In this document: piece after piece, positions 1-46,900 of the stretch
How the letters are laid out: every line of letters starts with the position of its first letter
How positions within the stretch are numbered: the first letter of the stretch is position 1
Assembly (NCBI RefSeq): GCF_013201935.1
Contig: NZ_CP053833.1
Span: 248,001 to 312,000 of the forward strand
Source of the DNA: Arcobacter cloacae
GTDB lineage: Bacteria > Campylobacterota > Campylobacteria > Campylobacterales > Arcobacteraceae
Direction of reading: 5' to 3'
Length of the DNA stretch: 64,000 bases
The notes under the pieces: generated by a model
What the model saw: only the letters and a program-made list of their open reading frames with translations
Database searches by the model: none
What the model was told of the DNA's origin: nothing
Program-made: the position numbers and the translations under genes

Positions 1-906
1 AGGAGGTTTATTTTCAATAACATAATCTAATTTTTCAATTCTATCTTTAAAGAATTTTATTAAAGTATCAAATATAAAGTTATTGTATTCTTTAGAATCA
101 ATTCCATCTTTTAAATTTACATCACCTGTAAAACTATATTTATCATTTTTATGCTCTTCAGGATTCAGTTTTTTTAATTCTTCAAGTTTTACTCCAAAAT
201 CATCAAGCAATTCTTGGAAACTTGATGGCACTCCTTTATTTCCAGGATAGCCATCAAAAATTGAACGTACTAAATCAGTAGCATCGCCGACACTTAAATT
301 ATCAAGAGTTTTCATTACAGCATTTTTTAATGGTTCATTATTTATTAAATGAAAACCATGTTGTTTAATATCTCCATAAGGTAATTTTTCATCTATTTGC
401 CAAACTTTTTGTTTTCCATAATCCAATAATCCTGCTCTTGCATAAGTAGTAGCTCTTACTAAAGCATGTTCTTCACTTTCACCTTTAGCCATCCATTTTT
501 TCACAAAAGCTTCAAACTCAGGAGCATCTTCATATTTATTCCCATTTGTTGCTTTCATCATTTGAGTTTGCCATTCGTAACCAATTGGGTCATAAGATTG
601 TGAATTTTTATATCCTTCGTAAGCTCCTGGATCATAGTCATATTTATTCATAGTAGGATAAAGTAATTGATCTTCCCATTTAACTGATGTTGGTTTTTCA
701 TAAGTTACACTTGAAGTTGATGGAATATTGGAACTTTCATAATATGCAGCTGATGTTTTTACATTATCTGTATTATTTGTATTTGCTTTATCTATTAATC
801 TTTCAAATGTATTTAGTATTCCACCACTATTTACTTCATCAACTTTTTTTGTTGATGAAGTTTTTGATTGATATGAATTTTGTGAATATGAGTTATTTAT
901 TTCCAT
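1..906 (-). CDS. Hypothetical protein, downstream copy of a tandem pair (3' end cut by window)
   Basis: The gene runs off the left edge; 302 codons are visible. I do not recognise the family. The ATG at 906 is preceded by GGAG and begins MEINNSYSQNSY, exactly like its upstream neighbour. An in-frame ATG at 918 is also possible but lacks a better ribosome site. There is no signal peptide or membrane segment. The first ~70 residues are rich in Ser, Asn and Thr. Then come a Tyr-rich stretch (YDPGAYEGY, YDPIGYEW) and conserved blocks FEAFVKKWMAKGES and YARAGLLDYGKQ. It lacks its own visible promoter and its start lies inside the end of the upstream copy, so it is probably translationally coupled. 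Function unknown; a cytoplasmic protein or a substrate of a leaderless export route are both possible. Confidence 0.75.
   Translation of the reverse strand, partial: MEINNSYSQNSYQSKTSSTKKVDEVNSGGILNTFERLIDKANTNNTDNVKTSAAYYESSNIPSTSSVTYEKPTSVKWEDQLLYPTMNKYDYDPGAYEGYKNSQSYDPIGYEWQTQMMKATNGNKYEDAPEFEAFVKKWMAKGESEEHALVRATTYARAGLLDYGKQKVWQIDEKLPYGDIKQHGFHLINNEPLKNAVMKTLDNLSVGDATDLVRSIFDGYPGNKGVPSSFQELLDDFGVKLEELKKLNPEEHKNDKYSFTGDVNLKDGIDSKEYNNFIFDTLIKFFKDRIEKLDYVIENKPP
833..861 (-). other. Intragenic hairpin near the 5' end of the downstream copy
   Basis: A perfect 11-bp inverted repeat (ACTTCATCAAC / GTTGATGAAGT on the coding strand) encloses a 7-nt A-rich loop, about 45 nt inside the gene. There is no U tract after it, so it is not a terminator. 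The same structure occurs in the paralogue at 1830-1858. Confidence 0.5.
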
Positions 907-1903
907 TGTTTTCTCCATTATAACCATCTACTTCTTTTTTAAAGTTATCTATCAAAGAATTTAAACCATCTCTTACTTCATGATAATCAGGAGTATCTTC
1001 AGGAGGTTTATTTGCAACATAGTAATCAAATTTTTCAATTCTATCTTCAAAGAATTTTATTAAAGTATCAAATATAAAGTTGTTGTATTCTTTAGAATCA
1101 GTTCCATCTTTTAAATTTACATCACCTGTAAAACTATATTTATCATTTTTATGCTCTTCAGGATTCAGTTTTTTTAATTCTTCTAGTTTAATTCCAAAGT
1201 TATCAAGTAATTCTTGGAAACTAGAAGGTACTCCTTTATTTTCAGGATAGCCATCAAAAATTGAACGTACTAAATCATAAGCATCTTCATAATTTAAACT
1301 ATCAAGAGTTTTCATTACAGCATTTTTTAATGGTTCATTATTTATTAAATGAAAACCATGTTGTTTAATATCTCCATAAGGTAATTTTTCATCTATTTGA
1401 TGAGCTCTTTGTTTACCATAATCTAATAATCCTGCTCTTGCATAAAGTGTTGCTCTTCCTAAAGCTCGGTCTTCACTTTCACCTTTAGCCATCCATTTTT
1501 TTATAAAAGCTTCAAACTCAGGAGCATCTTCATATTTATTCCCATTTGTTGCAGTTCTTAATTGAGTTATCCATTCATAACCAATAGGATCATAAGATTG
1601 TGAATTTTCATATGCTTCATATGCTCCTGGATCAAATTCATACTTCATATTAGGATAAAGTAATTGTTCTTCCCATTTAACTGATGTTGGTTTTTCATAG
1701 GTTACACTTGAAGTTGATGGAATATTGGAACTTTCATAATATGCAGCTGATGTTTTTACATTATCTGTATTATTTGTATTTGCTTTATCTATTAATCTTT
1801 CAAATGTATTTAGTATTCCACCACTATTTACTTCATCAACTTTTTTTGTTGATGAAGTTTGTGATTGATATGAATTTTGTGAATATGAGTTATTTATTTC
1901 CAT
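893..1903 (-). CDS. Hypothetical protein, upstream copy of a tandem pair
   Basis: This is a 336-residue protein of unrecognised family. I chose the ATG at 1903 because AAGGA lies 6 nt upstream and the paralogue starts at the same residue; the frame stays open to 1951, but that region holds the promoter. The layout is a Ser/Asn/Thr-rich N-terminus, a Tyr-rich segment near residues 75-105, then a mostly helical, Lys/Glu-rich body ending in NGENNGNK. No signal peptide, membrane helix or catalytic motif is evident. The final codons overlap the start of the downstream copy by 14 bp in another frame. The promoter carries the direct repeat that also precedes the response regulator at 6467, so this pair is a likely target of that regulator (inference). 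Confidence 0.8.
   Translation of the reverse strand: MEINNSYSQNSYQSQTSSTKKVDEVNSGGILNTFERLIDKANTNNTDNVKTSAAYYESSNIPSTSSVTYEKPTSVKWEEQLLYPNMKYEFDPGAYEAYENSQSYDPIGYEWITQLRTATNGNKYEDAPEFEAFIKKWMAKGESEDRALGRATLYARAGLLDYGKQRAHQIDEKLPYGDIKQHGFHLINNEPLKNAVMKTLDSLNYEDAYDLVRSIFDGYPENKGVPSSFQELLDNFGIKLEELKKLNPEEHKNDKYSFTGDVNLKDGTDSKEYNNFIFDTLIKFFEDRIEKFDYYVANKPPEDTPDYHEVRDGLNSLIDNFKKEVDGYNGENNGNK
1830..1858 (-). other. Intragenic hairpin near the 5' end of the upstream copy
   Basis: This is the same perfect 11-bp stem and 7-nt loop as at 833-861, at the same distance from the start codon. It could shape mRNA stability or early translation, or simply reflect the codons used (TSSTKKVDEV); the sequence alone cannot decide. 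Confidence 0.5.
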
Positions 1904-1930: not shown

Positions 1931-1962
1931 AGTATATAATTTATCCGTCACATTCTCGTCAC
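1931..1962 (-). promoter_or_regulatory. Promoter of the tandem unknown genes with OmpR-type direct repeat
   Basis: Read on the minus strand, GTGACG-AGAAT-GTGACG (1962-1946) is followed after 9 nt by TATACT (1936-1931), a good -10 box. The start codon lies 42 nt beyond the repeat. Direct 6-bp repeats with 11-bp periodicity overlapping the -35 position are typical of OmpR/PhoB-type activators. The identical 17-bp repeat with the same 9-nt spacing to a -10 box precedes the response regulator at 6467. Confidence 0.7.
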
Positions 1963-2037
1963 AAAATCAAAGATATAATTATTTTTATATAAATTTAAAT
2001 ATACTTCTTTGCTTTAAAACTAAAATGTAGGATTGAT

Positions 2038-3375
2038 TTGAAAAAACTTTTAATTGTTTTAATAATTTTTATCTCTAATTTATTTGGAAATATAATAGAA
2101 CTAAATTCAAATAATTTAGAAATATTATCTCAATCAAAAATTTACATAGATAATACAAGAAAACTAAATATTGATGAAATCATAAAAAATGATAAGAATT
2201 TTGTAAATGTAAATAGTTCTATAAAAAATTATGGTTATTCACCCAAGTTTGATGTTTGGATTAAATTTACATTACATAATAAAAAAGATGAACCTATTAC
2301 AAAAATTTTAGAGTTTTCAAATTCTTTAGTGACAAATATCTCTTTTTATGAAGATACTAATCTTATAAAAAATGAAGGTTTACTAAATAAAGATATTAAT
2401 AGAAAGAGCGTTAATCCTACTTTTGTAATCAATCTTGATAAAAATGAAACAAAAACTTTTTATCTAAAAGTCTTTTCAAAAAAGACTGCACTTACATTAA
2501 ATTTAAATCTTTATTCAAATGATGAATTTTATTCAAAAGAGATATTTCATCAGGTTATTTTAGCTTTATTTTTTGGAGCGATGATAATATTGGCTTTATA
2601 TAACTTTGCCATTTTTTTAATGATTAAGGATATTAGTTATTTATATTATGTTGGATATATAACTACTTTAGTATTTCATCATCTGCTTTATGTTGGTTTT
2701 GCTAATTTATATTTTGTTGATGATAGATTTATGAAAATCATTGTTGATTATGCAGCTTTATTTATCGCTCTTCCTGTTTTGTTTTTGGCTTTTTTCTCTA
2801 AATCATTTTTAGAAATAAAACAATATCCAAAAATAAATATGATTTTAAATATCTTAATGTTAGTGATGATTATTTCTGTGATTTACTTTAGCTTTTTTAA
2901 TTATCTTTTGAAATATAGAAATATAGTACCAATTTTACTTATGAGTTATCTATTTGGAATTACTTTGTATGCATTTATTAAAAAGAATGCTCAAGCAAAA
3001 CTAATTTTATTTGGTTGGGCTGCGATACTTATTGCAGGTTTAATAATGTATTTATCAAGTGTAGGGATTTTTAATGTTGATTTAACATCATATTATGTGG
3101 TTGAAATTTCATTTATTTTAGAGGTGTTAGTATTTTCAATTGCCTTATCAAATAGAATAAAAAGACTTCAAGAAGAGAAAAACAAAATTCAAATTAAGCT
3201 TATAGAAGAACAAAAAGATAATGAAGAAAAATTAAATAAGCTAGTAATTCAAAAAACTGATAAATTAAACAAAGCTCTTGAAGAAAAAGATATATTACTC
3301 AAAGAGTTAAACCATCGTGTAAAAAATAATATGCAAACTATAATCTCATTAATTAGATTACAAAATGATGAAATA
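2038..3375 (+). pseudogene. Sensor histidine kinase, 5' part, interrupted by IS21-family element
   Basis: This is the N-terminal 446 codons of a 7TMR-DISM sensor kinase. TTG start with AGGA upstream, signal peptide at residues 1-17, periplasmic DISMED2-like domain (~25-155), seven membrane helices (~170-375), a coiled coil, then a HisKA_2 box ELNHRVKNNMQTIISLIRLQ with phospho-acceptor His426. The insertion element begins exactly after codon 446 and its first three bases, TGA, act as the stop. The missing half lies at 5917-6405. Removing the element and one AAATA copy gives an in-frame 608-residue kinase reading LQNDEIDDITINTLL across the joint. The truncated protein keeps sensor, membrane part and His but has no ATP-binding domain, so it should not autophosphorylate. 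The intact partner regulator follows at 6467. Confidence 0.9.
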
Positions 3376-3500
3376 TGAATTTTTTGACTGAAAATTGACC
3401 CACTATTTTGAAAACTTTTGACCCACCTGTAAACTAAAAAAACATACTCTTTTCTCATAAAAATAATAATTATGAAGAAAGGTAAAAGGAGATGATTAGT

Positions 3501-5003
3501 ATGGAGGATTGGGTAACTATTCGTAATCTAAAAAAGAAAGATCCAAACTTAGGAACTAGAACAATTGCTTTAATGTTAGGTATTAGTAGAAATACTGTAA
3601 AAAAAGCATTATTAAATGATGAATTACCTTTATATAACAGAGGTGAGAAAAAAATAAATGAAGCAGTTGAACCATTTATTGATTTTATCAAAGAGTCATT
3701 TTTAAAGAAAAATTTAAAAGCTAGTAGAATTTTAAAAGATATAAAATCAAAAGGATATAGAGGAAGTCAATATGCTTTATATGCTTACATAAGAGAAATT
3801 TTAAAACCAATAGCAAACGATGTAAGTAAAAATTCACCTCATGCTTACATGAGATATGAAACAAAACCAGCTGAACAGATGCAATATGATTGGAGTCCAT
3901 ATACAGTTACTATTGGTGAAAATCTTGTAAAAATAAATATACATCAAACAATCTTAGGATTTAGTAGATATAAATTTTATGATGTAAGTTTAAATGTATC
4001 AGGAAGTGATGTATATACAGCATTAGAAGAGAGTTTTATCTTCTTTGGAGGAGTTTGTGAAAGAATACAAGTTGATAATGCAACAGTATTTATAACAAAT
4101 GCTTCTAAAGATAATCTTATTTGGAATCCAAGATTTTTATCATTGTGTGGATTGTATGGAATAAAACCAACAAGAAGTATGCCATCACATCCATGGAGTA
4201 AAGGTAAAGTTGAATCACCTTTTAGTTATCTTGAAACACATTTTATTAGTGGTAATGAATTTAAAAGCTTTGAAGATTTAAGAGAACGATTAAAACAATT
4301 TCAAGATGAGCATAATTTAGAGATTCATGGCACAACTAAACAAATTTCAAAAATACTCTTTGAAAAAGAGGAACAAAGTTTTTTAAAACCACTACCAATA
4401 AATCCAATAACTGGGGAATTAAAACGATATGTTGGATTTAAAGAAGAGTTTAGAAAGGCAAATTCTGAATGTTTAGTCTCTTACAAAGGTAATAAATATT
4501 CAGTTCCACATTACTTTGCAAGTAAAGAGGTTTGGTTAAGAGTATTATATGGAACAACTTTGCAAATATACTCAAGTAAAAATAAACTAATAGCAACTCA
4601 TACAATTAGCCTTAAAAAAGGTGAAGTCCTTGTTAATAAAGAGCATTTCAATGGATATAGAAAAGAAAATCAGTTTGATTCAATTGCAATTTCAATATCA
4701 AGACTTATAAAAAGATTTGCTAACTACATAAATATTCATAAATTCATTGAAAATATTAAAGTTCAAAAAAGAATTAGCCCAGCTTATCACCTTTATAAAA
4801 TAGCAAACTTGTTTGAATACTACGATGAGGCTGATTGTATTATGGCAATGGAAGAAGCAATTAGTTTAAATATTTATAGCTTCTCTTTTATCAAAGGAAC
4901 AATTACACATCAAACCAAGCCAAAAAATGAACAGTTAAATCTGTTTAATATCAAATTACCCCAAGCAAATATAAAAAGAGATTTAGGAGATTATAAAATA
5001 TGA
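3501..5003 (+). CDS. istA: IS21-family transposase IstA
   Basis: DDE transposase that cuts and joins the element's ends. The ATG at 3501 is favoured because AAAGGAG lies ~8 nt upstream; an ATG at 3492 abuts that ribosome site. Length is 500 residues, normal for IstA. There is an N-terminal helix-turn-helix (~10-40, GTRTIALMLGISRNTVKKAL) and an rve integrase core with acidic residues in MQYDWSPY, IQVDNATVF and WSKGKVESPF. The C-terminal region is the usual Mu-transposase-like part. Its stop overlaps the istB start by 4 bp, the normal coupling in this family. No frameshift is visible. Confidence 0.95.
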   Translation: MEDWVTIRNLKKKDPNLGTRTIALMLGISRNTVKKALLNDELPLYNRGEKKINEAVEPFIDFIKESFLKKNLKASRILKDIKSKGYRGSQYALYAYIREILKPIANDVSKNSPHAYMRYETKPAEQMQYDWSPYTVTIGENLVKINIHQTILGFSRYKFYDVSLNVSGSDVYTALEESFIFFGGVCERIQVDNATVFITNASKDNLIWNPRFLSLCGLYGIKPTRSMPSHPWSKGKVESPFSYLETHFISGNEFKSFEDLRERLKQFQDEHNLEIHGTTKQISKILFEKEEQSFLKPLPINPITGELKRYVGFKEEFRKANSECLVSYKGNKYSVPHYFASKEVWLRVLYGTTLQIYSSKNKLIATHTISLKKGEVLVNKEHFNGYRKENQFDSIAISISRLIKRFANYINIHKFIENIKVQKRISPAYHLYKIANLFEYYDEADCIMAMEEAISLNIYSFSFIKGTITHQTKPKNEQLNLFNIKLPQANIKRDLGDYKI

Positions 5004-5839
5004 GAAATAAAAATACTACAAACTTAAGAAACAGTGGACCAGTTAATTTAGAGAATGGTTCACTAAAAGCAAATATAGAGAGTTATTGTAAACTTTTATC
5101 TCTTTCATCAGTGGCAGATAATTATGAAAGTGCAGCACTTGATGCTGCTAAAGCAAAACTATCATATCAAGATTATCTGTATAAACTATTGCAACAACAA
5201 ATAGTTGATAGAGTAGATAGAAGTGTAAATGCTAGAATTAAAAAAGCAGGATTCAAATATATGGCAACTTTGGATGAGTTTGATTTTAGCTTTCAACCTC
5301 AAATAGATGAAAAACTAATACGAGAATTAGCAACTCTAAGCTTTTTAGATAGTGCTACAAATGTACTTTTAGTTGGTGCTCCAGGAGTTGGAAAAACTCA
5401 TCTTTCAATAGCATTAGGACTTGAAGCCACCAAACAAAGAAGAAGAGTAAAATTTATAAGTGCTGAAGATTTAACCAATGAACTAATAGCTGCAAATCAC
5501 TCTAATACTATAACAGATTATCTTGAAAGTATGAGTAGAATAGAGTTACTAATAATTGATGAAATTGGATACTTAGACCTTTCAAGAGAAGTAGCATCAC
5601 TTTTTTTTAGACTTATTTCAAAGAGATATGAAAAATCTTCAACAATAATTACATCAAATAAAGAATTTCAAGAATGGGGACAGATATTTAATGATGATGT
5701 GATAGCAACAGCAATACTAGATAGACTTTTACATCATTCACATCCATTTTTAATAAATGGTCCAAGTTATAGAATGAAAGATTTATTGCCAAAAAGTAAA
5801 AAGAAACAAAATTTAGAGAATAAAAATAACGAAATTTAA
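5000..5839 (+). CDS. istB: IS21-family helper ATPase IstB
   Basis: DnaC/DnaA-like AAA+ ATPase that assists IstA in target selection. It has 279 residues, slightly longer than usual because of an N-terminal extension (RNSGPVNLENGS) before the first conserved helix. Walker A is GAPGVGKTHLS (~residues 126-136) and Walker B LLIIDEIGYLD, followed by the sensor-type TSNKEFQEWG motif and a C-terminal HHSHPFLINGPSYR segment characteristic of IstB. It starts inside the istA stop codon (ATGA) and ends 72 bp before the right end of the element. Confidence 0.95.
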   Translation: MRNKNTTNLRNSGPVNLENGSLKANIESYCKLLSLSSVADNYESAALDAAKAKLSYQDYLYKLLQQQIVDRVDRSVNARIKKAGFKYMATLDEFDFSFQPQIDEKLIRELATLSFLDSATNVLLVGAPGVGKTHLSIALGLEATKQRRRVKFISAEDLTNELIAANHSNTITDYLESMSRIELLIIDEIGYLDLSREVASLFFRLISKRYEKSSTIITSNKEFQEWGQIFNDDVIATAILDRLLHHSHPFLINGPSYRMKDLLPKSKKKQNLENKNNEI

Positions 5840-5916
5840 TGTTATAATTTCAATCTGCAGGTGGGTCATTTTTAATCAAAAAAGTGGGTCAAATTTCAAT
5901 CAAAATTTTCAAAATA

Positions 5917-6405
5917 GATGATATTACTATAAATACTCTTCTTACAACTATTCAAAATAGAATTAGTGCAATGAGTCACTTACATGAACTTCTATATCAA
6001 AAAGATGCTATTACTTTTATAGATGCAAATGAGTATTTTGAAAAAATTATATTTGAAGTGGAACAAAGTTTTGATAAAAATGTAAAAATAAAATATGAAA
6101 TCAATTCTACTATTAGTTCTGAATCTGCTATTTATTGTGGATTAATAATCAATGAACTTGTAACAAACAGTTTTAAACATGCTTTTATAAACAAAAAAGA
6201 TGGATTTATAAATATTACTTTTTATAGTAAAAATAATTCATACTATTTATACTACAGTGATAATGGTCAAGGTTATAATCAAATAGATAAAAAAGAGTCA
6301 TTAGGTTTAGTTTTAATAGAAACTCTTGCAAAAAAACAGTTAAAAGCTAGTTTGAAAATTGTATCAAATGATGGTGTTAAAATCGAAATAAAATGGAAAG
6401 AATAG
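5917..6405 (+). pseudogene. Sensor histidine kinase, 3' part (ATP-binding half)
   Basis: Continuation of the kinase at 2038-3375, in the frame that fits the restored gene. It encodes the rest of the HisKA_2 helix (TTIQNRISAMSHLHELLYQ) and the HATPase domain: N-box ELVTNSFKHAF, G1 box DNGQGY, and SLGLVLIETLAKKQLKA. The frame stays open upstream into the element to a GTG at 5884, so a short cytoplasmic fragment could be made by read-through from the IS, but no ribosome site of note precedes it. It ends 62 bp before the regulator gene. Confidence 0.88.
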
Positions 6406-6409
6406 TATT

Positions 6410-6441
6410 GTGACGAGAATGTGACGATAGTTTTGTATTAT
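6410..6441 (+). promoter_or_regulatory. Promoter of response regulator with OmpR-type direct repeat
   Basis: GTGACG-AGAAT-GTGACG (6410-6426) is followed after 9 nt by TATTAT (6436-6441). The first half-site covers the expected -35 position. Apart from the -10 box, the layout equals that of the promoter at 1931-1962. It gives the regulator its own promoter downstream of the broken kinase and suggests autoregulation. Confidence 0.7.
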
Positions 6442-6466: not shown

Positions 6467-7156
6467 ATGATAAAAATTTTAATAGTTGAAGATGAAACAA
6501 TTGTTGCTCTTGATACAAAAAGTACTTTAAAAAAATTAGGGTACGAAGTAACGGATATTGTAACAAATTATGAAGATACAATGAAATCAATTTTAGATAA
6601 TAAACCTGATATTATTTTGATGGATATATTTCTAAAAAATAGTATAAATGGTATTGAAATATCCAAGAAAATAAATGAAAAAGATAGTATTCCAATAATA
6701 TTTGTAAGTGCTTATTGTGATGATGAAACAGTAGCTAATGCTGTTGAAACAGAACCAGCTGGATATTTAGTTAAACCATTTAATCGTAATGATTTAAAAA
6801 CAACAATAAATTTAGTAGCTTATAAATTACAAAAAAATCTAAAAGAAAAAATTATAATTAATAGGCAAAAACTCTCTTCAAACTATTATTATAGTTTTGA
6901 AGAACATTTGAAAATTTATTATGAAACACAAGAAATATCTATCACAAAAAATGAAAGATTATTTTTAGAAGTTCTCATAAAAGCAAAAGGAACAACTGTT
7001 CCTTTTGAATCGATAGAACATTATATATGGGGAAATAACTCTATATCTGATAGTACATTAAGAACATTATTATATAGATTAAGAAGTAAATTCAATCATC
7101 AACTAATAGAAACAAGCCCATCACTTGGTTGTAGATTGAATTTTGAAGATGATTAA
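6467..7156 (+). CDS. OmpR-type response regulator
   Basis: 229-residue two-component regulator. Residues 1-~120 form a receiver domain with acidic pocket residues in VEDE, phospho-acceptor Asp53 (ILMDIFL), the conserved Ser in IIFVSAY and Lys in LVKPF. Residues ~140-229 form a winged-helix DNA-binding domain (ITKNERLFLEVLIK, STLRTLLYRLRSKF, GCRLNF). It lies directly after the 3' half of the DISM kinase, its presumed partner. Because an IS21 element breaks that kinase, the regulator now lacks its local phosphodonor; it could act unphosphorylated or be driven by another kinase. It has its own promoter with a direct repeat it may bind itself. Confidence 0.92.
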   Translation: MIKILIVEDETIVALDTKSTLKKLGYEVTDIVTNYEDTMKSILDNKPDIILMDIFLKNSINGIEISKKINEKDSIPIIFVSAYCDDETVANAVETEPAGYLVKPFNRNDLKTTINLVAYKLQKNLKEKIIINRQKLSSNYYYSFEEHLKIYYETQEISITKNERLFLEVLIKAKGTTVPFESIEHYIWGNNSISDSTLRTLLYRLRSKFNHQLIETSPSLGCRLNFEDD

Positions 7157-12069: not shown

Positions 12070-13107
12070 ATGGAATATGATGCACTTTATAAAAATAATG
12101 CATATGCTAAATATTTAGAAAACAAAATTTCAAATGAGGAAATAATTGAAAAATATAATTTAGATGATGCAAATATTTCATTATTAAATGAATATGTAAG
12201 TCTTAAATTGAAAATTGCATATTTTAACTTACTAAATTTACAGTTGGAGATTGATAAGTTAAAAAAAGAAAGGGAGTTTAGTGATTATAACAGATATTTT
12301 TTTACTAATTTTGAAATATTAAAAATATATTTTGATACATTATCTGATATAAATTTATCTGAGAAATATTTTATTACTAGTGATTTTAATGCACTCCAAG
12401 ATACAAGTTTACTGAATTTAGGTTTTTTACAACAATATTCAGAAACTCATAGAGAGCACATTAAAAAGTTCTTTGTTAGAGACAATAAGCAAGTAGATAA
12501 AAATGATATTTTAGATAATAGTATTTATTTCATAAAAGAATATGTATTAAATAATAAAATTAAATCATCAATTAATGAAAAACTAAGATATAAACTTGTG
12601 GAAGATCCAATACTTTTTAATGATGATTTTAGAGATTTAATTTTTCAAAAATTAGAGAGTTTAGAAATAGATTATATAAATAATGATCTGAAAAGATTTA
12701 CTTTTTTAGAGTATATTGTATTATTGCCACTCTATTTACTTGATATAAAAAAAGATATATCTAAATTTGATTGTATACTCAATTCAATTAATTCATATAA
12801 TATAAATAATAATTCTAAATTTAAATTATTAGAGAATGATATAGAAATACTAAAAGGATTAGGAGAGAATCAATTACTTGCGTATTGTGCTAGTTTAATT
12901 TCTAAAGTATTTTATCTTGAATATAAGGAATTACGAGAATTATATCTTTCTTTTTACTCAGCATCTTGCTTTTCTGATTCTTATTCTAGTAGTTTTTCTA
13001 AAAATACAAATTTTTTAAAAAAGGAAAAACTATTTTTTGAAGTTGATGATTCCAAACATGAAATTAATATTCTTTTTCCATTGTTTCATATATTTTTCGA
13101 TAAATGA
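12070..13107 (+). CDS. Unknown protein, divergent from the island operon
   Basis: 345 residues, unrecognised. ATG preceded by AGGGG at ~6 nt. Predicted as largely helical and cytoplasmic, rich in Asn, Tyr, Leu and Lys, with a helix-turn-helix-like opening (LENKISNEEIIEKYNLDD) and a coiled coil near residues 60-85 (LNLQLEIDKLKKEREF). The Ser-rich patch near residue 310 (SASCFSDSYSSSFSKN) looks disordered. It sits between the AAGTTTTGCA control region and the island integrase, so it belongs to the mobile element. No catalytic motif is visible. Confidence 0.65.
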   Translation: MEYDALYKNNAYAKYLENKISNEEIIEKYNLDDANISLLNEYVSLKLKIAYFNLLNLQLEIDKLKKEREFSDYNRYFFTNFEILKIYFDTLSDINLSEKYFITSDFNALQDTSLLNLGFLQQYSETHREHIKKFFVRDNKQVDKNDILDNSIYFIKEYVLNNKIKSSINEKLRYKLVEDPILFNDDFRDLIFQKLESLEIDYINNDLKRFTFLEYIVLLPLYLLDIKKDISKFDCILNSINSYNINNNSKFKLLENDIEILKGLGENQLLAYCASLISKVFYLEYKELRELYLSFYSASCFSDSYSSSFSKNTNFLKKEKLFFEVDDSKHEINILFPLFHIFFDK

Positions 13108-13164
13108 ATATGTTTTTAGCAAAAAAAGCAATTATATATCATTAGTTTAAAGATCAATATTGTT

Positions 13165-14313
13165 TTAGATTATTAAATTTTCAGTAATCTCATGTCTAAT
13201 ATTTGGTATTAAATGAGCATATCTCATAGTCATTTCAATATTTCTATGACCAAGTTGTTCTTTTATTTGTAAAATATCCAGTCCTGCTTCTGCAAGCCAA
13301 CTTGCATGAGTATGGCGAAGAGAATGAGCAGTAATTTTATATTTTGAGGTTTGAGATTTATTTCCTGGTATTACTTTTTCAACAGCATTTTTAAAATAAT
13401 CAGGCATTCTTAAAATTGTTCCACCAGCACTATTATTGATTACATTATTATTCGTTTTATTATCATAGAGTGTTTTTAAAGTTTCAAGTAAAATACTATT
13501 TATTGCAATATACCTTTCGTTTCCATCTTTAGTTTTTTTGAAGTAAATAGTATTTGTATTAAAGTTTACATCATCCCATCTAAGTGCTGTGTTTTCCTTA
13601 GATTTATTCTTTTTTGATGCAGCACCAGTAACTTCACTAAATCTTGCCCCTGTGAAAAGTAAAATTACAGTTAGATGATAAGTTAACTCATGAGTAGATT
13701 TTAATATTTCAAGAAGTTTTTTTGCTTGTTCTTTTGATAAAAAAGATACCCTTTTGTTATCAATAGAAGGCATCTTAACTTTTCCATTAGCTAATGGATT
13801 TACATAATTATTTAAAATATCATGTTTAATAGCATAATTTATAATAGTTCTAATAAGTGTTAATTGATGTTTTACAGTTTGAGCTTCTAATGGTTTATTA
13901 AAAAGTGTTTGTTTAAAATTTTCAAAATCTAAGGATTTAAGATTTTTCACATTTTTATTTCCAAAAATTGGTTTTATATGTTTATTATAATTTAATTCGT
14001 CCATAAAATATGATTTCTTATTTACTTTGGCATATTTTAGAAATTCTTCCCAGATATCATTTAATTTAATTTTAGAACTCTTTCCAGTTTTAATAGTAGG
14101 TAATTCTTCATGTTGTAATTTATATTTTATTTCAATTAATTTTGAATATGCATCTTTAATTGTGAAATCATTAATTTTTGTCTTTTTACCTACTTGTAAT
14201 TTTACAGGTCTCCCATTTTCATCTCTATAATTTACATAGTAAGATACATCTCCATTTTTTAACTTATTAGTCCACACTCCTTCATATTTTCCACCTACAG
14301 GTTCCAAAGCCAT
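13165..14313 (-). CDS. int: Island integrase, tyrosine recombinase
   Basis: 382 residues, ATG preceded by AAGGA. Domains: N-terminal arm-binding-like segment (~1-75), core-binding domain (~85-170), and catalytic domain with LFTGARFSEV (Arg), a Lys in the following hairpin, AHSLRHTHASWL (His-x-x-Arg), LGHRNIEMTMRYAHL (His and nucleophile Tyr). All catalytic residues seem present. The gene faces away from a tRNA-Leu 3' fragment 210 bp upstream of its start, the usual position of an integrase beside its attachment site. Repeats of TTTTTACTACA lie between and may be arm sites. It probably inserted the island that fills at least the left part of the window. Confidence 0.93.
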   Translation of the reverse strand: MALEPVGGKYEGVWTNKLKNGDVSYYVNYRDENGRPVKLQVGKKTKINDFTIKDAYSKLIEIKYKLQHEELPTIKTGKSSKIKLNDIWEEFLKYAKVNKKSYFMDELNYNKHIKPIFGNKNVKNLKSLDFENFKQTLFNKPLEAQTVKHQLTLIRTIINYAIKHDILNNYVNPLANGKVKMPSIDNKRVSFLSKEQAKKLLEILKSTHELTYHLTVILLFTGARFSEVTGAASKKNKSKENTALRWDDVNFNTNTIYFKKTKDGNERYIAINSILLETLKTLYDNKTNNNVINNSAGGTILRMPDYFKNAVEKVIPGNKSQTSKYKITAHSLRHTHASWLAEAGLDILQIKEQLGHRNIEMTMRYAHLIPNIRHEITENLII

Positions 14314-34991: not shown

Positions 34992-37900
34992 ATGAAGTTA
35001 ACAATAAAATCAGACAATCAAGTTAAGATTATAGATCTAAACAAGGATTTAGAGTTAAGTGCTGTAAAAGGTGAGCAATATGTGTTTTCTAATGGATTCA
35101 CTAATTATACGCTTAATTTTAAAGACGATCAGCAGACGGTGTCTTTTCAATTTAATGTTGATGGAAAAGTAATAAAGATTGACTTAAAAGGAATAGTACC
35201 TTTTCTTCAAGAAAATTCTTCAGAAATTGAAAATCCTACAGCTATTATTATCAATAAAACTATTAATGAAAAAAATATTGAAAATATTTTACAAAATGAT
35301 GATTTTAATGGTAGTGAAATAATTGATAAATTAGAAGCGTTAATAACTAATCCTGCAAATTTGGGAAAAGATTTAACTTTAATATCAGATTTCCAAACTT
35401 TAATTGAGGCTTTAGATGCAGCAGCTGCTGGAGGAGAACAAGGTGGTAATAATACAAATGGTTCATCTTTTAATTCAATTTTTTCTCCATTAGAAGACTC
35501 ATTAAATGATATAGGTGAAACAGATATATGGGAAAATTTATCTGAATCTATATCAAGTATCCCTGTTGATACTGGTACTCCTGTTGGAACTGTAGCAGAA
35601 GTTACTACAATAGTAAATGTAAAATTGATTCCAGTAAAAACAGCAGTAACTGAGGGTGAAAGTGCAACATATAAAGTAACATTGACAGATGATGCAGGAA
35701 ACCCAGTAATAGCTGTAAAAGATATGGAAGTAACATTTACTTATACATATACAACAGCATCAGGTGATGATATCACAGAAACAGTAAGTGTAACTATCCC
35801 AGCAGGAAGCTCAGAAGCACCAGTAAGTGTAAAAACAATCGATGATGTGTACGCAGAGGGAACAGAAGAGTTTACAATAGAGATAAATACAGTTTCAAAT
35901 CAAGATCAGTTTGAAAATGTAACAGTAGATAAAACACCAGTAGTAACAACAATTACAGATGAGACAGACCCATATACACCAACAGATCCAGATCAACCAA
36001 ATGAAAAAGATAATGTAAATGTAAAACTAGTTGGAGTTGATACAGCAGTAACTGAGGGTGAAAGTGCAACATATAAAGTAACATTGACAGATGATGCAGG
36101 AAACCCAGTAATAGCTGTAAAAGATATGGAAGTAACATTTACTTATACATATACAACAGCATCAGGTGATGATATCACAGAAACAGTAAGTGTAACTATC
36201 CCAGCAGGAAGCTCAGAAGCACCAGTAAGTGTAAAAACAATCGATGATGTGTACGCAGAGGGAACAGAAGAGTTTACAATAGAGATAAATACAGTTTCAA
36301 ATCAAGATCAGTTTGAAAATGTAACAGTAGATAAAACACCAGTAGTAACAACAATTACAGATGAGACAGACCCATATACACCAACAGATCCAGATCAACC
36401 AAATGAAAAAGATAATGTAAATGTAAAACTAGTTGGAGTTGATACAGCAGTAACTGAGGGTGAAAGTGCAACATATAAAGTAACATTGACAGATGATGCA
36501 GGAAACCCAGTAATAGCTGTAAAAGATATGGAAGTAACATTTACTTATACATATACAACAGCATCAGGTGATGATATCACAGAAACAGTAAGTGTAACTA
36601 TCCCAGCAGGAAGCTCAGAAGCACCAGTAAGTGTAAAAACAATCGATGATGTGTACGCAGAGGGAACAGAAGAGTTTACAATAGAGATAAATACAGTTTC
36701 AAATCAAGATCAGTTTGAAAATGTAACAGTAGATAAAACACCAGTAGTAACAACAATTACAGATGAGACAGACCCATATACACCAACAGATCCAGATCAA
36801 CCAAATGAAAAAGATAATGTAAATGTAAAACTAGTTGGAGTTGATACAGCAGTAACTGAGGGTGAAAGTGCAACATATAAAGTAACATTGACAGATGATG
36901 CAGGAAACCCAGTAATAGCTGTAAAAGATATGGAAGTAACATTTACTTATACATATACAACAGCATCAGGTGATGATATCACAGAAACAGTAAGTGTAAC
37001 TATCCCAGCAGGAAGCTCAGAAGCACCAGTAAGTGTAAAAACAATCGATGATGTGTACGCAGAGGGAACAGAAGAGTTTACAATAGAGATAAATACAGTT
37101 TCAAATCAAGATCAGTTTGAAAATGTAACAGTAGATAAAACACCAGTAGTAACAACAATTACAGATGAGACAGACCCATATACACCAACAGATCCAGATC
37201 AACCAAATGAAAAAGATAATGTAAATGTAAAACTAGTTGGAGTTGATACAGCAGTAACTGAGGGTGAAAGTGCAACATATAAAGTAACATTGACAGATGA
37301 TGCAGGAAACCCAGTAATAGCTGTAAAAGATATGGAAGTAACATTTACTTATACATATACAACAGCATCAGGTGATGATATCACAGAAACAGTAAGTGTA
37401 ACTATCCCAGCAGGAAGCTCAGAAGCACCAGTAAGTGTAAAAACAATCGATGATGTGTACGCAGAGGGAACAGAAGAGTTTACAATAGAGATAAATACAG
37501 TTTCAAATCAAGATCAGTTTGAAAATGTAACAGTAGATAAAACACCAGTAGTAACAACAATTACAGATGAGACAGACCCATATACACCAACAGATCCAGA
37601 TCAACCAAATGAAAAAGATAATGTAAATGTAAAACTAGTTGGAGTTGATACAGCAGTAACTGAGGGTGAAAGTGCAACATATAAAGTAACATTGACAGAT
37701 GATGCAGGAAACCCAGTAATAGCTGTAAAAGATATGGAAGTAACATTTACTTATACATATACAACAGCATCAGGTGATGATATCACAGAAACAGTAAGTG
37801 TAACTATCCCAGCAGGAAGCTCAGAAGCACCAGTAAGTGTAAAAACAATCGATGATGTGTACGCAGAGGGAACAGAAGAGTTTACAATAGAGATAAATAC

Positions 37901-40900
37901 AGTTTCAAATCAAGATCAGTTTGAAAATGTAACAGTAGATAAAACACCAGTAGTAACAACAATTACAGATGAGACAGACCCATATACACCAACAGATCCA
38001 GATCAACCAAATGAAAAAGATAATGTAAATGTAAAACTAGTTGGAGTTGATACAGCAGTAACTGAGGGTGAAAGTGCAACATATAAAGTAACATTGACAG
38101 ATGATGCAGGAAACCCAGTAATAGCTGTAAAAGATATGGAAGTAACATTTACTTATACATATACAACAGCATCAGGTGATGATATCACAGAAACAGTAAG
38201 TGTAACTATCCCAGCAGGAAGCTCAGAAGCACCAGTAAGTGTAAAAACAATCGATGATGTGTACGCAGAGGGAACAGAAGAGTTTACAATAGAGATAAAT
38301 ACAGTTTCAAATCAAGATCAGTTTGAAAATGTAACAGTAGATAAAACACCAGTAGTAACAACAATTACAGATGAGACAGACCCATATACACCAACAGATC
38401 CAGATCAACCAAATGAAAAAGATAATGTAAATGTAAAACTAGTTGGAGTTGATACAGCAGTAACTGAGGGTGAAAGTGCAACATATAAAGTAACATTGAC
38501 AGATGATGCAGGAAACCCAGTAATAGCTGTAAAAGATATGGAAGTAACATTTACTTATACATATACAACAGCATCAGGTGATGATATCACAGAAACAGTA
38601 AGTGTAACTATCCCAGCAGGAAGCTCAGAAGCACCAGTAAGTGTAAAAACAATCGATGATGTGTACGCAGAGGGAACAGAAGAGTTTACAATAGAGATAA
38701 ATACAGTTTCAAATCAAGATCAGTTTGAAAATGTAACAGTAGATAAAACACCAGTAGTAACAACAATTACAGATGAGACAGACCCATATACACCAACAGA
38801 TCCAGATCAACCAAATGAAAAAGATAATGTAAATGTAAAACTAGTTGGAGTTGATACAGCAGTAACTGAGGGTGAAAGTGCAACATATAAAGTAACATTG
38901 ACAGATGATGCAGGAAACCCAGTAATAGCTGTAAAAGATATGGAAGTAACATTTACTTATACATATACAACAGCATCAGGTGATGATATCACAGAAACAG
39001 TAAGTGTAACTATCCCAGCAGGAAGCTCAGAAGCACCAGTAAGTGTAAAAACAATCGATGATGTGTACGCAGAGGGAACAGAAGAGTTTACAATAGAGAT
39101 AAATACAGTTTCAAATCAAGATCAGTTTGAAAATGTAACAGTAGATAAAACACCAGTAGTAACAACAATTACAGATGAGACAGACCCATATACACCAACA
39201 GATCCAGATCAACCAAATGAAAAAGATAATGTAAATGTAAAACTAGTTGGAGTTGATACAGCAGTAACTGAGGGTGAAAGTGCAACATATAAAGTAACAT
39301 TGACAGATGATGCAGGAAACCCAGTAATAGCTGTAAAAGATATGGAAGTAACATTTACTTATACATATACAACAGCATCAGGTGATGATATCACAGAAAC
39401 AGTAAGTGTAACTATCCCAGCAGGAAGCTCAGAAGCACCAGTAAGTGTAAAAACAATCGATGATGTGTACGCAGAGGGAACAGAAGAGTTTACAATAGAG
39501 ATAAATACAGTTTCAAATCAAGATCAGTTTGAAAATGTAACAGTAGATAAAACACCAGTAGTAACAACAATTACAGATGAGACAGACCCATATACACCAA
39601 CAGATCCAGATCAACCAAATGAAAAAGATAATGTAAATGTAAAACTAGTTGGAGTTGATACAGCAGTAACTGAGGGTGAAAGTGCAACATATAAAGTAAC
39701 ATTGACAGATGATGCAGGAAACCCAGTAATAGCTGTAAAAGATATGGAAGTAACATTTACTTATACATATACAACAGCATCAGGTGATGATATCACAGAA
39801 ACAGTAAGTGTAACTATCCCAGCAGGAAGCTCAGAAGCACCAGTAAGTGTAAAAACAATCGATGATGTGTACGCAGAGGGAACAGAAGAGTTTACAATAG
39901 AGATAAATACAGTTTCAAATCAAGATCAGTTTGAAAATGTAACAGTAGATAAAACACCAGTAGTAACAACAATTACAGATGAGACAGACCCATATACACC
40001 AACAGATCCAGATCAACCAAATGAAAAAGATAATGTAAATGTAAAACTAGTTGGAGTTGATACAGCAGTAACTGAGGGTGAAAGTGCAACATATAAAGTA
40101 ACATTGACAGATGATGCAGGAAACCCAGTAATAGCTGTAAAAGATATGGAAGTAACATTTACTTATACATATACAACAGCATCAGGTGATGATATCACAG
40201 AAACAGTAAGTGTAACTATCCCAGCAGGAAGCTCAGAAGCACCAGTAAGTGTAAAAACAATCGATGATGTGTACGCAGAGGGAACAGAAGAGTTTACAAT
40301 AGAGATAAATACAGTTTCAAATCAAGATCAGTTTGAAAATGTAACAGTAGATAAAACACCAGTAGTAACAACAATTACAGATGAGACAGACCCATATACA
40401 CCAACAGATCCAGATCAACCAAATGAAAAAGATAATGTAAATGTAAAACTAGTTGGAGTTGATACAGCAGTAACTGAGGGTGAAAGTGCAACATATAAAG
40501 TAACATTGACAGATGATGCAGGAAACCCAGTAATAGCTGTAAAAGATATGGAAGTAACATTTACTTATACATATACAACAGCATCAGGTGATGATATCAC
40601 AGAAACAGTAAGTGTAACTATCCCAGCAGGAAGCTCAGAAGCACCAGTAAGTGTAAAAACAATCGATGATGTGTACGCAGAGGGAACAGAAGAGTTTACA
40701 ATAGAGATAAATACAGTTTCAAATCAAGATCAGTTTGAAAATGTAACAGTAGATAAAACACCAGTAGTAACAACAATTACAGATGAGACAGACCCATATA
40801 CACCAACAGATCCAGATCAACCAAATGAAAAAGATAATGTAAATGTAAAACTAGTTGGAGTTGATACAGCAGTAACTGAGGGTGAAAGTGCAACATATAA

Positions 40901-43900
40901 AGTAACATTGACAGATGATGCAGGAAACCCAGTAATAGCTGTAAAAGATATGGAAGTAACATTTACTTATACATATACAACAGCATCAGGTGATGATATC
41001 ACAGAAACAGTAAGTGTAACTATCCCAGCAGGAAGCTCAGAAGCACCAGTAAGTGTAAAAACAATCGATGATGTGTACGCAGAGGGAACAGAAGAGTTTA
41101 CAATAGAGATAAATACAGTTTCAAATCAAGATCAGTTTGAAAATGTAACAGTAGATAAAACACCAGTAGTAACAACAATTACAGATGAGACAGACCCATA
41201 TACACCAACAGATCCAGATCAACCAAATGAAAAAGATAATGTAAATGTAAAACTAGTTGGAGTTGATACAGCAGTAACTGAGGGTGAAAGTGCAACATAT
41301 AAAGTAACATTGACAGATGATGCAGGAAACCCAGTAATAGCTGTAAAAGATATGGAAGTAACATTTACTTATACATATACAACAGCATCAGGTGATGATA
41401 TCACAGAAACAGTAAGTGTAACTATCCCAGCAGGAAGCTCAGAAGCACCAGTAAGTGTAAAAACAATCGATGATGTGTACGCAGAGGGAACAGAAGAGTT
41501 TACAATAGAGATAAATACAGTTTCAAATCAAGATCAGTTTGAAAATGTAACAGTAGATAAAACACCAGTAGTAACAACAATTACAGATGAGACAGACCCA
41601 TATACACCAACAGATCCAGATCAACCAAATGAAAAAGATAATGTAAATGTAAAACTAGTTGGAGTTGATACAGCAGTAACTGAGGGTGAAAGTGCAACAT
41701 ATAAAGTAACATTGACAGATGATGCAGGAAACCCAGTAATAGCTGTAAAAGATATGGAAGTAACATTTACTTATACATATACAACAGCATCAGGTGATGA
41801 TATCACAGAAACAGTAAGTGTAACTATCCCAGCAGGAAGCTCAGAAGCACCAGTAAGTGTAAAAACAATCGATGATGTGTACGCAGAGGGAACAGAAGAG
41901 TTTACAATAGAGATAAATACAGTTTCAAATCAAGATCAGTTTGAAAATGTAACAGTAGATAAAACACCAGTAGTAACAACAATTACAGATGAGACAGACC
42001 CATATACACCAACAGATCCAGATCAACCAAATGAAAAAGATAATGTAAATGTAAAACTAGTTGGAGTTGATACAGCAGTAACTGAGGGTGAAAGTGCAAC
42101 ATATAAAGTAACATTGACAGATGATGCAGGAAACCCAGTAATAGCTGTAAAAGATATGGAAGTAACATTTACTTATACATATACAACAGCATCAGGTGAT
42201 GATATCACAGAAACAGTAAGTGTAACTATCCCAGCAGGAAGCTCAGAAGCACCAGTAAGTGTAAAAACAATCGATGATGTGTACGCAGAGGGAACAGAAG
42301 AGTTTACAATAGAGATAAATACAGTTTCAAATCAAGATCAGTTTGAAAATGTAACAGTAGATAAAACACCAGTAGTAACAACAATTACAGATGAGACAGA
42401 CCCATATACACCAACAGATCCAGATCAACCAAATGAAAAAGATAATGTAAATGTAAAACTAGTTGGAGTTGATACAGCAGTAACTGAGGGTGAAAGTGCA
42501 ACATATAAAGTAACATTGACAGATGATGCAGGAAACCCAGTAATAGCTGTAAAAGATATGGAAGTAACATTTACTTATACATATACAACAGCATCAGGTG
42601 ATGATATCACAGAAACAGTAAGTGTAACTATCCCAGCAGGAAGCTCAGAAGCACCAGTAAGTGTAAAAACAATCGATGATGTGTACGCAGAGGGAACAGA
42701 AGAGTTTACAATAGAGATAAATACAGTTTCAAATCAAGATCAGTTTGAAAATGTAACAGTAGATAAAACACCAGTAGTAACAACAATTACAGATGAGACA
42801 GACCCATATACACCAACAGATCCAGATCAACCAAATGAAAAAGATAATGTAAATGTAAAACTAGTTGGAGTTGATACAGCAGTAACTGAGGGTGAAAGTG
42901 CAACATATAAAGTAACATTGACAGATGATGCAGGAAACCCAGTAATAGCTGTAAAAGATATGGAAGTAACATTTACTTATACATATACAACAGCATCAGG
43001 TGATGATATCACAGAAACAGTAAGTGTAACTATCCCAGCAGGAAGCTCAGAAGCACCAGTAAGTGTAAAAACAATCGATGATGTGTACGCAGAGGGAACA
43101 GAAGAGTTTACAATAGAGATAAATACAGTTTCAAATCAAGATCAGTTTGAAAATGTAACAGTAGATAAAACACCAGTAGTAACAACAATTACAGATGAGA
43201 CAGACCCATATACACCAACAGATCCAGATCAACCAAATGAAAAAGATAATGTAAATGTAAAACTAGTTGGAGTTGATACAGCAGTAACTGAGGGTGAAAG
43301 TGCAACATATAAAGTAACATTGACAGATGATGCAGGAAACCCAGTAATAGCTGTAAAAGATATGGAAGTAACATTTACTTATACATATACAACAGCATCA
43401 GGTGATGATATCACAGAAACAGTAAGTGTAACTATCCCAGCAGGAAGCTCAGAAGCACCAGTAAGTGTAAAAACAATCGATGATGTGTACGCAGAGGGAA
43501 CAGAAGAGTTTACAATAGAGATAAATACAGTTTCAAATCAAGATCAGTTTGAAAATGTAACAGTAGATAAAACACCAGTAGTAACAACAATTACAGATGA
43601 GACAGACCCATATACACCAACAGATCCAGATCAACCAAATGAAAAAGATAATGTAAATGTAAAACTAGTTGGAGTTGATACAGCAGTAACTGAGGGTGAA
43701 AGTGCAACATATAAAGTAACATTGACAGATGATGCAGGAAACCCAGTAATAGCTGTAAAAGATATGGAAGTAACATTTACTTATACATATACAACAGCAT
43801 CAGGTGATGATATCACAGAAACAGTAAGTGTAACTATCCCAGCAGGAAGCTCAGAAGCACCAGTAAGTGTAAAAACAATCGATGATAATATTTATGAAAT

Positions 43901-46900
43901 ATCAGAGGAGTTTAAAATAGCTATAAATACAGTTTCAAACCAAGATCAGTTTGAAAATGTAACAGTAGATAAAACACCAGTTCTAACTGTAATAAATGAT
44001 GAAGATGATAATAACCCAGATACTCCAGATGATAAAGATGGAGATAAACCAATACTTATAATAACTGGAAGTACAGTTACAGAAATAGATAGTGGAATTT
44101 CTACAGGTGAAAAAGTTATAGGTACTGTTGAAATTAGTATTACAAATGGAAAAGTTTTTGCTGATGATTTAAATATAACATTAAGTACAGGTCAAGTTGT
44201 AACTATTAAAGCAGGTGAAACAACAACTGGACCTATTTATGTTGAAACAAACAGGGTAGATGATTACTATAAACAAGGCACTACAACTTATGACGTATCT
44301 ATTCAAAGTGTGTCAAATCCTAAAATTGATATACCAGAAAAAGCCACAATAACTATAAACGATGATGAAGATCCAATAGGTATTGAAATTACAGCGGTTG
44401 CAACTGCTCCAAAGATTATTGATGTTAATACTGAATTTAATGAATTAACAGGAGTGAAAATTACTGCAACGGATACTGATGGTAATCCAAAAAATATATC
44501 GGTTGTTACAGGTACGAATCATGATGGATTTGGAGTAGAAGGTAAAACTACTGGAAGTGGAGCAAGTTCAGAATTAGGAAATCTTGGAAATGGGAAAAGT
44601 GAAAAATTAATTTTTGAATTTGATAAAGATATTAATTCTTTAGATGTTGCTTTTGCTTGGAGACATAATGGTGAAACAGCAAGAATTACATTTATAAATG
44701 ATGGTAGTATTATAGGGTACGCTGAAGTTAAAGGAGGAGGAACTAATACAAAAGCAAAAGTAAATTACTATACTACAGATGGTGAATTAATAAGAACTGT
44801 TGAAGCACAAGGAGGAACAGATAGAGTAGATTTATCTTATACTTTTGAGTTAGTAAATAATGATGGTAGTTTAGCATCTTTTGATCAAGTAGAGTTTACA
44901 GCACCAAATCATGATGATGATTATTTGATTAATAAAATTGCATATAAAGAAGTTTTAAATCCAGAAATAACAGATATCTCAGCTGATTCTGGAAGTGTAA
45001 CATTTGATATCCAACTTCAATATCCACCACAAGGAAATGCAACAGCTAAGATTGAAGTAAATGGAGTAGTCTATGATAATGTTATTATAAATGCAACAGG
45101 AAGAGCTACTTTAACAGTTGATGGAAATGATTTAGGTGATTTATCTAATGTGGTTATAAAAGTGTTGGAAATAAATGGTGGAAATTATGAAGAAGTAAAT
45201 CTTGTTGAAGAAACTTTTGACTTTACACCAATTCTAAAATCTTCTGATGATAGTATATCTACAAATGAAGATACAACTTATATCTTAAAAGTAAGTGATT
45301 TTGGAGATGTTTCTGTTAATACAAAAGAGTTTAAAATTACTGAGTTACCAGATGCTGAAAGTGGAAAACTTTATTTACTAGTTAAACAAGGTGAAACTAT
45401 AATAGATAAAGAAGGAAATACAAGTCAAGCAACACAAGATACAAAAGTTGAGATTTTTGAAAATCAAATTATAACATTAGCAAATGTTGGTGCGGGGAAA
45501 GTTATATTTGAACCAAAAGCTAATAGTGATATTGATGGAAACTTCAAATTTAAAGTTGGAGATGGAAAAGGTAAGTTTAGTGAAGAATATACAACAGTTA
45601 TTCAAGTAGTTGCAGTTGCTGATGCACCAGCTGCAAGTATTGATGTAACAAAAATTGCTTCTTCAACTACAGAATATAAAGTTGATATTAGTGCAGAATT
45701 AGCTGATAAAGATGGAAGTGAAACATTAAGTGTTAAAATAGCTGGAGTACCTAATGGAGTAACATTATCAAGTGATGTTTATACATTAGTAGATAATGGT
45801 GACAATACATGGACTGTAACAATTCCAGCTGGGATGAAAAGTATTTCAGATTCAATAACAATGAGTGTTCCAGAATCACATGCAACAAATATAATATTAG
45901 AGATAATAGCTAGAGCAACAGAAACTAATAATAATGCAGATGGACAAAATTTTGTAGAAGTTGTAGTAACTGATAAACAAGATGCACCAGTAATAGAAAG
46001 TATTACTGTTAATGTTTCAGAAGAAGGTTTATTAAATGGTATTAAAGATATAGATGGAATTGTAGATACAACAGATGAAACAAAAATAACTGGAACTATA
46101 AAAATTACTGATGCAAATAATGATATAACTAATGTAACATTAGCTGTTCCATCATCAGATTTAAAATCAAATGGTCAATTTATTGTATGGACTTTAAGTA
46201 ATACTGAAAAAGAATTAATTGGAAAAGTTGGAAATACAGAAGTAATTAAAGTTACAATAGATAATAATGGTAAATATTCAGTTGAATTATTAGCACCAGT
46301 TGATCATCCAGAAAATTCTGTAGAAGATATAGTATCACTTGATGTGGGTGTTAAAGTGATTGATTCTTTAGGTAATACTTCAAATGGTAAAATAGTTGTA
46401 AATATTGAAGATGATATGCCAAAAAGTTGTTCAGTAACAAATGAAATTGATATTCAAAAAGATGTAGTAGTTGTTAAAAATCTTCAAGCAGGATTTAAAG
46501 ATTCAGTTTATCATAATGGGACTTCTCAAGTTAAAAATACAAATAATGATAATGATAGTTTAATTGATAAAATTGAATGGGGAACACCAGCTAATTCTAC
46601 TAATGGTCAATCAGGGTATAGCTTAGTTGACAATAGTGCATATACAAATTCAATTGGTACACAAATAGATACAAATGGTGCATTTAAATTAGCAGATTTT
46701 ACTCATCAAAATTGGACAATTAATTCAGGTTCTTCAACTTTAGATAAAACTACAATAACTATGAAAATGGATGTAGTAATAAATGGAAAAGTTGTTAATA
46801 TTGAATTTGATGTATTACTTGACCATACAGAAACACCAAATACAAGTGATCCAATAGCTTCAAGAGATATTATTACATTACCTGAAAATGATATTACTAT

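What the first reader, a model, noticed from the sequence alone, without database searches (positions are those of the whole stretch)
1..1903. Tandem duplicate of an unrecognised gene with mosaic identity
The two copies are about 997 bp apart. Over the first ~236 bp from the start codon I count only three differences, whereas the middle (for example 381-480 against its counterpart) has many, including clustered amino-acid changes. Such a step in identity points to gene conversion or selection for divergence in the body. The family shows no known motif, and it seems to be the output of a sensory circuit, making it the main candidate for an undescribed function.
Basis: partly seen in the sequence, partly recalled or inferred. 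Interest (0 to 1): 0.62.

Follow-up and report, generated by a model that had tools for sequence, protein, structure and literature searches.

The report
Kinase-controlled tandem array of orphan proteins
The bacterium carries five copies (three in a row here, two elsewhere) of a gene of unknown function found only in the family Arcobacteraceae, apparently switched on by its own dedicated sensor system and kept alike at the front ends by copying between neighbours; the arrangement is real, but what the protein does is still unknown.

Summary
Confirmed: the window begins inside a tandem array of a gene of unknown family. There are three copies, not two (the third lies just left of the window), 997 and 1000 bp apart, plus two more copies in a 4.8-kb duplicate of the whole module elsewhere. 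The identity step at codon ~79 is significant. Synonymous divergence also collapses there (dS 0.02-0.06 against 0.2-0.6), so it reflects gene conversion, not protein constraint.

The 'output of a sensory circuit' guess is strongly supported at sequence level. TGTGAC-n5-TGTGAC followed by 10 bp and a -10 hexamer lies before the array and before the response-regulator gene, with only four near-exact copies of the 19-mer in the genome. Equivalent boxes precede the family operon in two other species; in one, that operon also contains the kinase and regulator. The kinase copy in the window is broken by an IS21-type element; the second locus has an intact one. Related regulators with the same box sit beside lipoprotein and FeeM (N-acyl amino acid synthase) genes elsewhere.

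No Pfam, NCBIfam, PADLOC or PDB match. The family is patchy (14 of 104 Arcobacteraceae genomes). Biochemical role unknown; best guess: an envelope or exported protein working with a secreted Fib_succ_major-like partner.

The parts
893..1903 (-). copy A1 of the orphan family (336 aa, MEINNSYSQNSYQ...), first gene of the array
   Evidence: ORF list; five near-identical genomic copies; no family match
1..906 (-). copy B1 (3' end outside the window; whole gene about genome C1:247893-248906); start codon overlaps the end of A1 by 14 nt; copy C1 follows outside the window
893..906 (-). overlap of the A1 stop with the B1 start (ATGGAAATAAATAA), suggesting translational coupling
   Evidence: junction sequence
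1946..1964 (-). regulator box TTGTGACGAGAATGTGACG (GTGAC direct repeat, 11-bp period), upstream of the array
   Evidence: 0 expected by chance in window; 4 copies in genome, control 0
1931..1936 (-). putative -10 (TATACT), 10 bp downstream of the box
2038..3378 (+). 5' part of the 7TMR-DISM / HisKA_2 histidine kinase, truncated by the insertion
   Evidence: Pfam 7TMR-DISM_7TM, 7TMR-DISMED2 and first part of HisKA_2; intact 608-aa copy at L013:7664-9490
3492..5839 (+). IS21-type insertion (IstA-like transposase and IstB genes) inside the kinase gene
   Evidence: Pfam Mu-transpos_C_2, rve and IstB_IS21
5884..6405 (+). 3' part of the kinase (HisKA_2 remainder and ATPase domain)
6408..6426 (+). 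second identical regulator box, upstream of the response-regulator gene; -10 TATTAT at 6436-6441
6467..7156 (+). OmpR-type response regulator (receiver + Trans_reg_C)
   Evidence: Pfam; essentially identical second copy

Best explanation
This is a self-contained, duplicated output module. A 7TMR-DISM sensor kinase and its OmpR-type response regulator act through a TGTGAC-n5-TGTGAC direct repeat ending 10 bp before a -10 element. They switch on a translationally coupled tandem array of a lineage-restricted protein, and the regulator gene itself. The array arose by tandem duplication. Its first ~80 codons are homogenised by gene conversion between neighbours; the bodies diverge under ordinary, relaxed purifying selection. 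In this strain the kinase copy in the window is broken by an IS21-type element, so this array would depend on the intact kinase of the second locus, whose regulator is essentially identical. The protein is acidic, Cys-free in all five copies, without a hydrophobic signal or membrane helix, with a predicted disordered Ser/Asn-rich N-terminus and a helical C-terminal domain. I infer, without proof, that it acts in the envelope or is exported by a non-Sec route, together with the secreted Fib_succ_major-like protein encoded just upstream of it in four relatives. Shown at sequence level: array, conversion pattern, boxes, linkage. Inferred: binding and activation, cross-talk between loci, location and role. 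My separate confidences: regulated, gene-converting array about 0.85; envelope or exported role about 0.35.
For: Five copies and module duplication (regulator-side stretch 99.4% identical, array-on-array alignments 88-95%). Gene conversion: between neighbours dS 0.02-0.06 in nt 1-237 against 0.30-0.64 in nt 238-420; breakpoint p = 0.005 to 0.0005; locus-specific sites only in the first 240 nt. Dedicated regulation: 19-bp box only 4 times in 2.8 Mb with up to 3 mismatches, control 0, all at the two module loci. GTGAC repeats followed by 10 bp and a -10 precede the family operon in G417 (order Fib_succ-family-family-kinase-regulator) and G011; chance expectation 0.15 boxes per 346 kb. Of the 16 genomes compared, four have no box at all and none of these four has a close regulator hit. 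The four best matches of the Fib_succ_major-like protein all lie directly upstream of a family gene or its remnant. Cys 0, pI 4.7-4.9, maximum 19-residue hydropathy 0.6; disordered N-terminus and helical domain.
Against: No expression or binding data. The structure model is poor (mean pLDDT 53, five sequences) and Foldseek found nothing. Family genes in G014, G023, G013, G412 and G032 show no such box in the stretches examined, so the regulatory link is not universal. The own genome has no Fib_succ_major-like protein of this type. The absence of Cys does not hold in distant members. Export is inferred only from composition and neighbours.
Confidence: 0.6

Rival explanations
1. The conserved first 80 codons reflect purifying selection on an N-terminal targeting signal, not gene conversion; the body diverges because it is the effector part.
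For: The first residues (MEIN..S..Q..Y) are recognisable across orthologues and even in unrelated neighbouring proteins of G023 (MQIQNNQN...).
Against: Synonymous differences between neighbours are as depleted as amino-acid changes in this stretch (dS 0.02-0.06), and locus-specific substitutions are shared within each array. Protein-level constraint does not do this. A targeting role may still exist in addition.
Confidence: 0.12
2. The family is a divergent branch of DUF4885 (PF16226), with which it shares N-terminal style, tandem arrangement and a short F..LL..Y.I......FTF motif.
For: The profile comparison of the whole family aligns exactly this motif (single-comparison E 0.005, probability 7%). 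A DUF4885 gene lies next to the family gene in G014.
Against: Pfam scans find no DUF4885 in any family member tested. The aligned stretch is only 46 columns at low probability.
Confidence: 0.1
3. The array is a decaying remnant: the kinase is broken by the insertion, copies are drifting, and the boxes survive by recent duplication only.
For: IS21-type element in the kinase; dN/dS about 0.5 in most comparisons; broken family copy in G383 and damaged partner gene in G011.
Against: All five copies are full-length open frames. The second locus has an intact kinase. C1/C2 dN/dS is 0.21 overall and A1/A2 is 0.05 in nt 421-750. The box is present before family operons in two other species.
Confidence: 0.15
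4. The proteins are flagellar type III export substrates: secreted, Cys-poor, with a disordered Ser/Asn-rich N-terminus. (This overlaps the best explanation and names one export route.)
For: Composition of residues 1-100 (36-39% S/T/N/Q against 17-20% in the rest), no hydrophobic signal; similar starts in neighbouring unrelated genes of G023.
Against: No export test possible; no flagellar gene was noticed at the loci, and the promoter looks sigma-70-like with a regulator box.
Confidence: 0.2

Closest known systems
PceS/PceP two-component system of Sulfurospirillum (PMC7755780)
   Same: Periplasmic sensor domain + seven-transmembrane kinase and an OmpR-family regulator; in the pceAB promoter CTATA recurs with six-nucleotide gaps over the -35 box, i.e. 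the same 11-nt step as here. The paper reports the nearest relative outside its genus in an Arcobacter (46% regulator identity).
   Different: PceS/PceP controls tetrachloroethene respiration and its consensus is CTATW-N17-CTATW; here the repeat is TGTGAC and the output is an orphan protein array. No direct comparison with the PceP sequence was made here.
DUF4885 (PF16226) proteins of Arcobacteraceae
   Same: Similar size, Ser/Asn-rich N-terminus, tandem copies, patchy distribution
   Different: No significant profile match; only a 46-column motif at 7% probability
Arcobacteraceae regulators linked to FeeM-type N-acyl amino acid synthases and lipoprotein operons (L070-L072, L150, L152)
   Same: Same kinase/regulator family, same box and 10-bp spacing
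   Different: Targets there are FeeM and lipoproteins; the window's genome has no FeeM

Membership tests
7TMR-DISM two-component system (PceS/PceP-like) | 7TMR-DISM_7TM + extracellular domain + HisKA_2/HATPase kinase | tested here: met
   Intact copy L013:7664-9490; the window copy is split by an insertion
7TMR-DISM two-component system (PceS/PceP-like) | OmpR-type regulator with receiver and winged-helix domains | tested here: met
   Response_reg and Trans_reg_C above Pfam cut-off
7TMR-DISM two-component system (PceS/PceP-like) | Regulator binds a direct repeat at the -35 region | tested here: inconclusive
   Boxes with constant 10-bp spacing to the -10; binding itself cannot be tested here
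DUF4885 (PF16226) | Match above Pfam's gathering score | tested here: not met
   No hit in any family member tested; none in own genome
Flagellar type III export substrates | Export dependent on the flagellar gate | not testable with these tools
   Only composition is suggestive
Anti-phage defence proteins | Match to a PADLOC model | tested here: not met
   No hit among 8 members
Phage or plasmid cargo | Relatives in phage or plasmid records | tested here: not met
   No match in phages, plasmids or IMG/VR

The most novel reading that the evidence does not exclude
A family-restricted class of non-Sec exported proteins, encoded in gene-converting tandem arrays and induced by a dedicated seven-transmembrane sensor system whose close relatives sit with N-acyl amino acid synthase genes; array and partner surface protein together form an undescribed extracellular response.
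Probability: 0.2. Interest if true: 0.65.

Novelty: new variant of a known kind. Interest (0 to 1): 0.42.

Why it matters
It gives a precise, testable regulatory code (TGTGAC-n5/6-TGTGAC + 10 bp + -10) for a widespread but little-studied group of seven-transmembrane sensor systems in Arcobacteraceae. It shows the same code placed before different outputs in different species. It also turns an anonymous gene family into the main predicted output of one sensor, so that function can be approached by activating one regulator.

Tried and rejected
Pfam, NCBIfam, PHROGs, PADLOC and PDB sequence searches: nothing convincing. AF2 model too weak for fold assignment; Foldseek against PDB gave no hit below E 1.5. 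DUF4885 homology: considered, not met. EF-hand in the FTGDVNLKDG stretch: considered by eye, but the spacing is not canonical and it is not kept in distant members. Viral, phage or plasmid origin: no relatives found. Mobile-element origin of the duplicated 4.8-kb module: I saw no terminal repeats by eye at the boundaries. Order-level hit G219 (E 7e-4) is a chance match in another protein's frame. Two literature searches for the family found nothing relevant, and no paper in the library mentions DUF4885.

Full report
Observation. The window's first two kilobases hold copy A1 (893-1903, minus strand) and most of copy B1 (from 906 leftwards) of one gene, 997 bp apart. Searching the genome shows a third tandem copy C1 immediately beyond the window's edge and two copies, A2 and C2, at C1:1481624-1483604, plus one distant paralogue at C1:1006694. 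In 60-bp blocks A1 and B1 differ by 1, 0, 0 and 2 in the first 240 bp and then by up to 11. A breakpoint scan on codons places the step at codon 78 with permutation p = 0.005; A1/C1, B1/C1 and A2/C2 give codons 78-80.

Cause of the step. In nt 1-237 dS is 0.02-0.06 between neighbours; in nt 238-420 it is 0.30-0.64. Low synonymous divergence cannot come from protein constraint, so conversion between neighbours is the natural reading. Sites that separate the two loci as groups occur only in the first 240 bp, while after that sites group genes by position (A1 with A2, C1 with C2). Further mosaic tracts show in A1/A2: A2 equals B1 at 241-300 and carries C-type states at 721-780. Overall dN/dS is 0.21-0.58, so strong positive selection on the body is not needed.

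Module. The 4.8-kb unit regulator-kinase-A-C exists twice. The regulator-side stretch is 99.4% identical, while alignments of array genes with each other range from 88 to 95%. At the window locus the unit differs by one more gene copy (B1) and by an IS21-type insertion that splits the kinase. The second locus carries an intact 7TMR-DISM/HisKA_2 kinase of 608 aa. Because the regulators are essentially identical, the intact kinase could serve both loci (inference). A1's stop overlaps B1's start by 14 nt.

Regulation. TTGTGACGAGAATGTGACG occurs at 1946-1964 (-) before A1 and at 6408-6426 (+) before the regulator gene; none is expected by chance in the window. Genome-wide, with three mismatches allowed, there are four copies, all at the two module loci, and none of the reversed control. 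Allowing the looser TGTGAC-n5/6-TGTGAC adds two places inside two similar mobilisation-gene regions, which I regard as probably unrelated. In 346 kb of loci, strict GTGAC repeats occur only at these loci or beside related regulators or family operons, with 0.15 expected by chance. All are followed by 10 bp and a -10-like hexamer, the match being weak (3 of 6) at the two FeeM promoters. G417, of another genus, has on one strand a Fib_succ_major-like gene, two family genes, kinase and regulator, with a box (12-bp period) in front. G011 has a box before its Fib_succ_major-like and family genes. In other relatives the box sits before lipoprotein operons and FeeM-type N-acyl amino acid synthase genes. 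The window's genome has no FeeM. The closest studied system I found is PceS/PceP of Sulfurospirillum, also a seven-transmembrane kinase with an OmpR-type regulator and direct repeats over the -35 region (PMC7755780).

The protein. There is no match in Pfam, NCBIfam, PADLOC or PDB sequences, and PHROG matches only at E 0.006 or worse. It is found in 14 of 104 Arcobacteraceae genomes and, apart from one chance hit, not elsewhere in the order sample of 399. Viral, phage and plasmid collections have none. The sequence is acidic, lacks Cys in all five copies, and has no hydrophobic stretch; residues 1-100 are 36-39% Ser/Thr/Asn/Gln. AlphaFold gives very low confidence for residues 1-122 and helices after, and Foldseek finds no relative. 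A secreted Fib_succ_major-like protein is encoded directly upstream in G417, G383, G023 and G011, and these are its four best relatives in the family. This is the strongest lead to function. Envelope or exported location is an inference.

Verdict.

Noticed in passing
L070:5018, L071:9580 and 13215, L072:7097 and 10731, L150, L152, L153: The same TGTGAC box family precedes FeeM-type N-acyl amino acid synthase genes and small lipoprotein operons beside related kinase/regulator genes, in two genomes on a small second contig.
   Followed up: partly
window 3492-5839: IS21-type element splits the kinase gene; an intact kinase exists in the second copy of the module.
   Followed up: yes
L074:10988-11758 and 12412-13296: Two unrelated genes near the family gene in G023 begin with MQIQNNQ..., like the family gene's MEIQNNQ..., hinting at a shared N-terminal signal.
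   Followed up: no
L043:9779-10798, L011:1396-2190, L016:1435-2331, L044:9524-10726 and L044:8695-9438: Several family members, and one unrelated neighbour, end in a TKN motif ([YL]TKN.[RK]); possible C-terminal signal. The window's copies lack it.
   Followed up: no
L085, L086, L095, L096, L089, L097: DUF4885 genes also form tandem pairs in Arcobacteraceae (G029, G021, G023).
   Followed up: partly
window 34992-49796: A 4934-aa LapA-type repetitive adhesin (Pfam LapA, 21 stretches).
   Followed up: no
genome C1:1916187 and C1:1991791 (L148, L149): Two TGTGAC repeats (12-bp period) in similar mobilisation-gene regions of this genome; relation to the regulator unclear.
   Followed up: partly
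L015 (G383) and L042:9440 (G011): The family gene of G383 and the Fib_succ_major-like gene of G011 are interrupted by stops or frameshifts.
   Followed up: no
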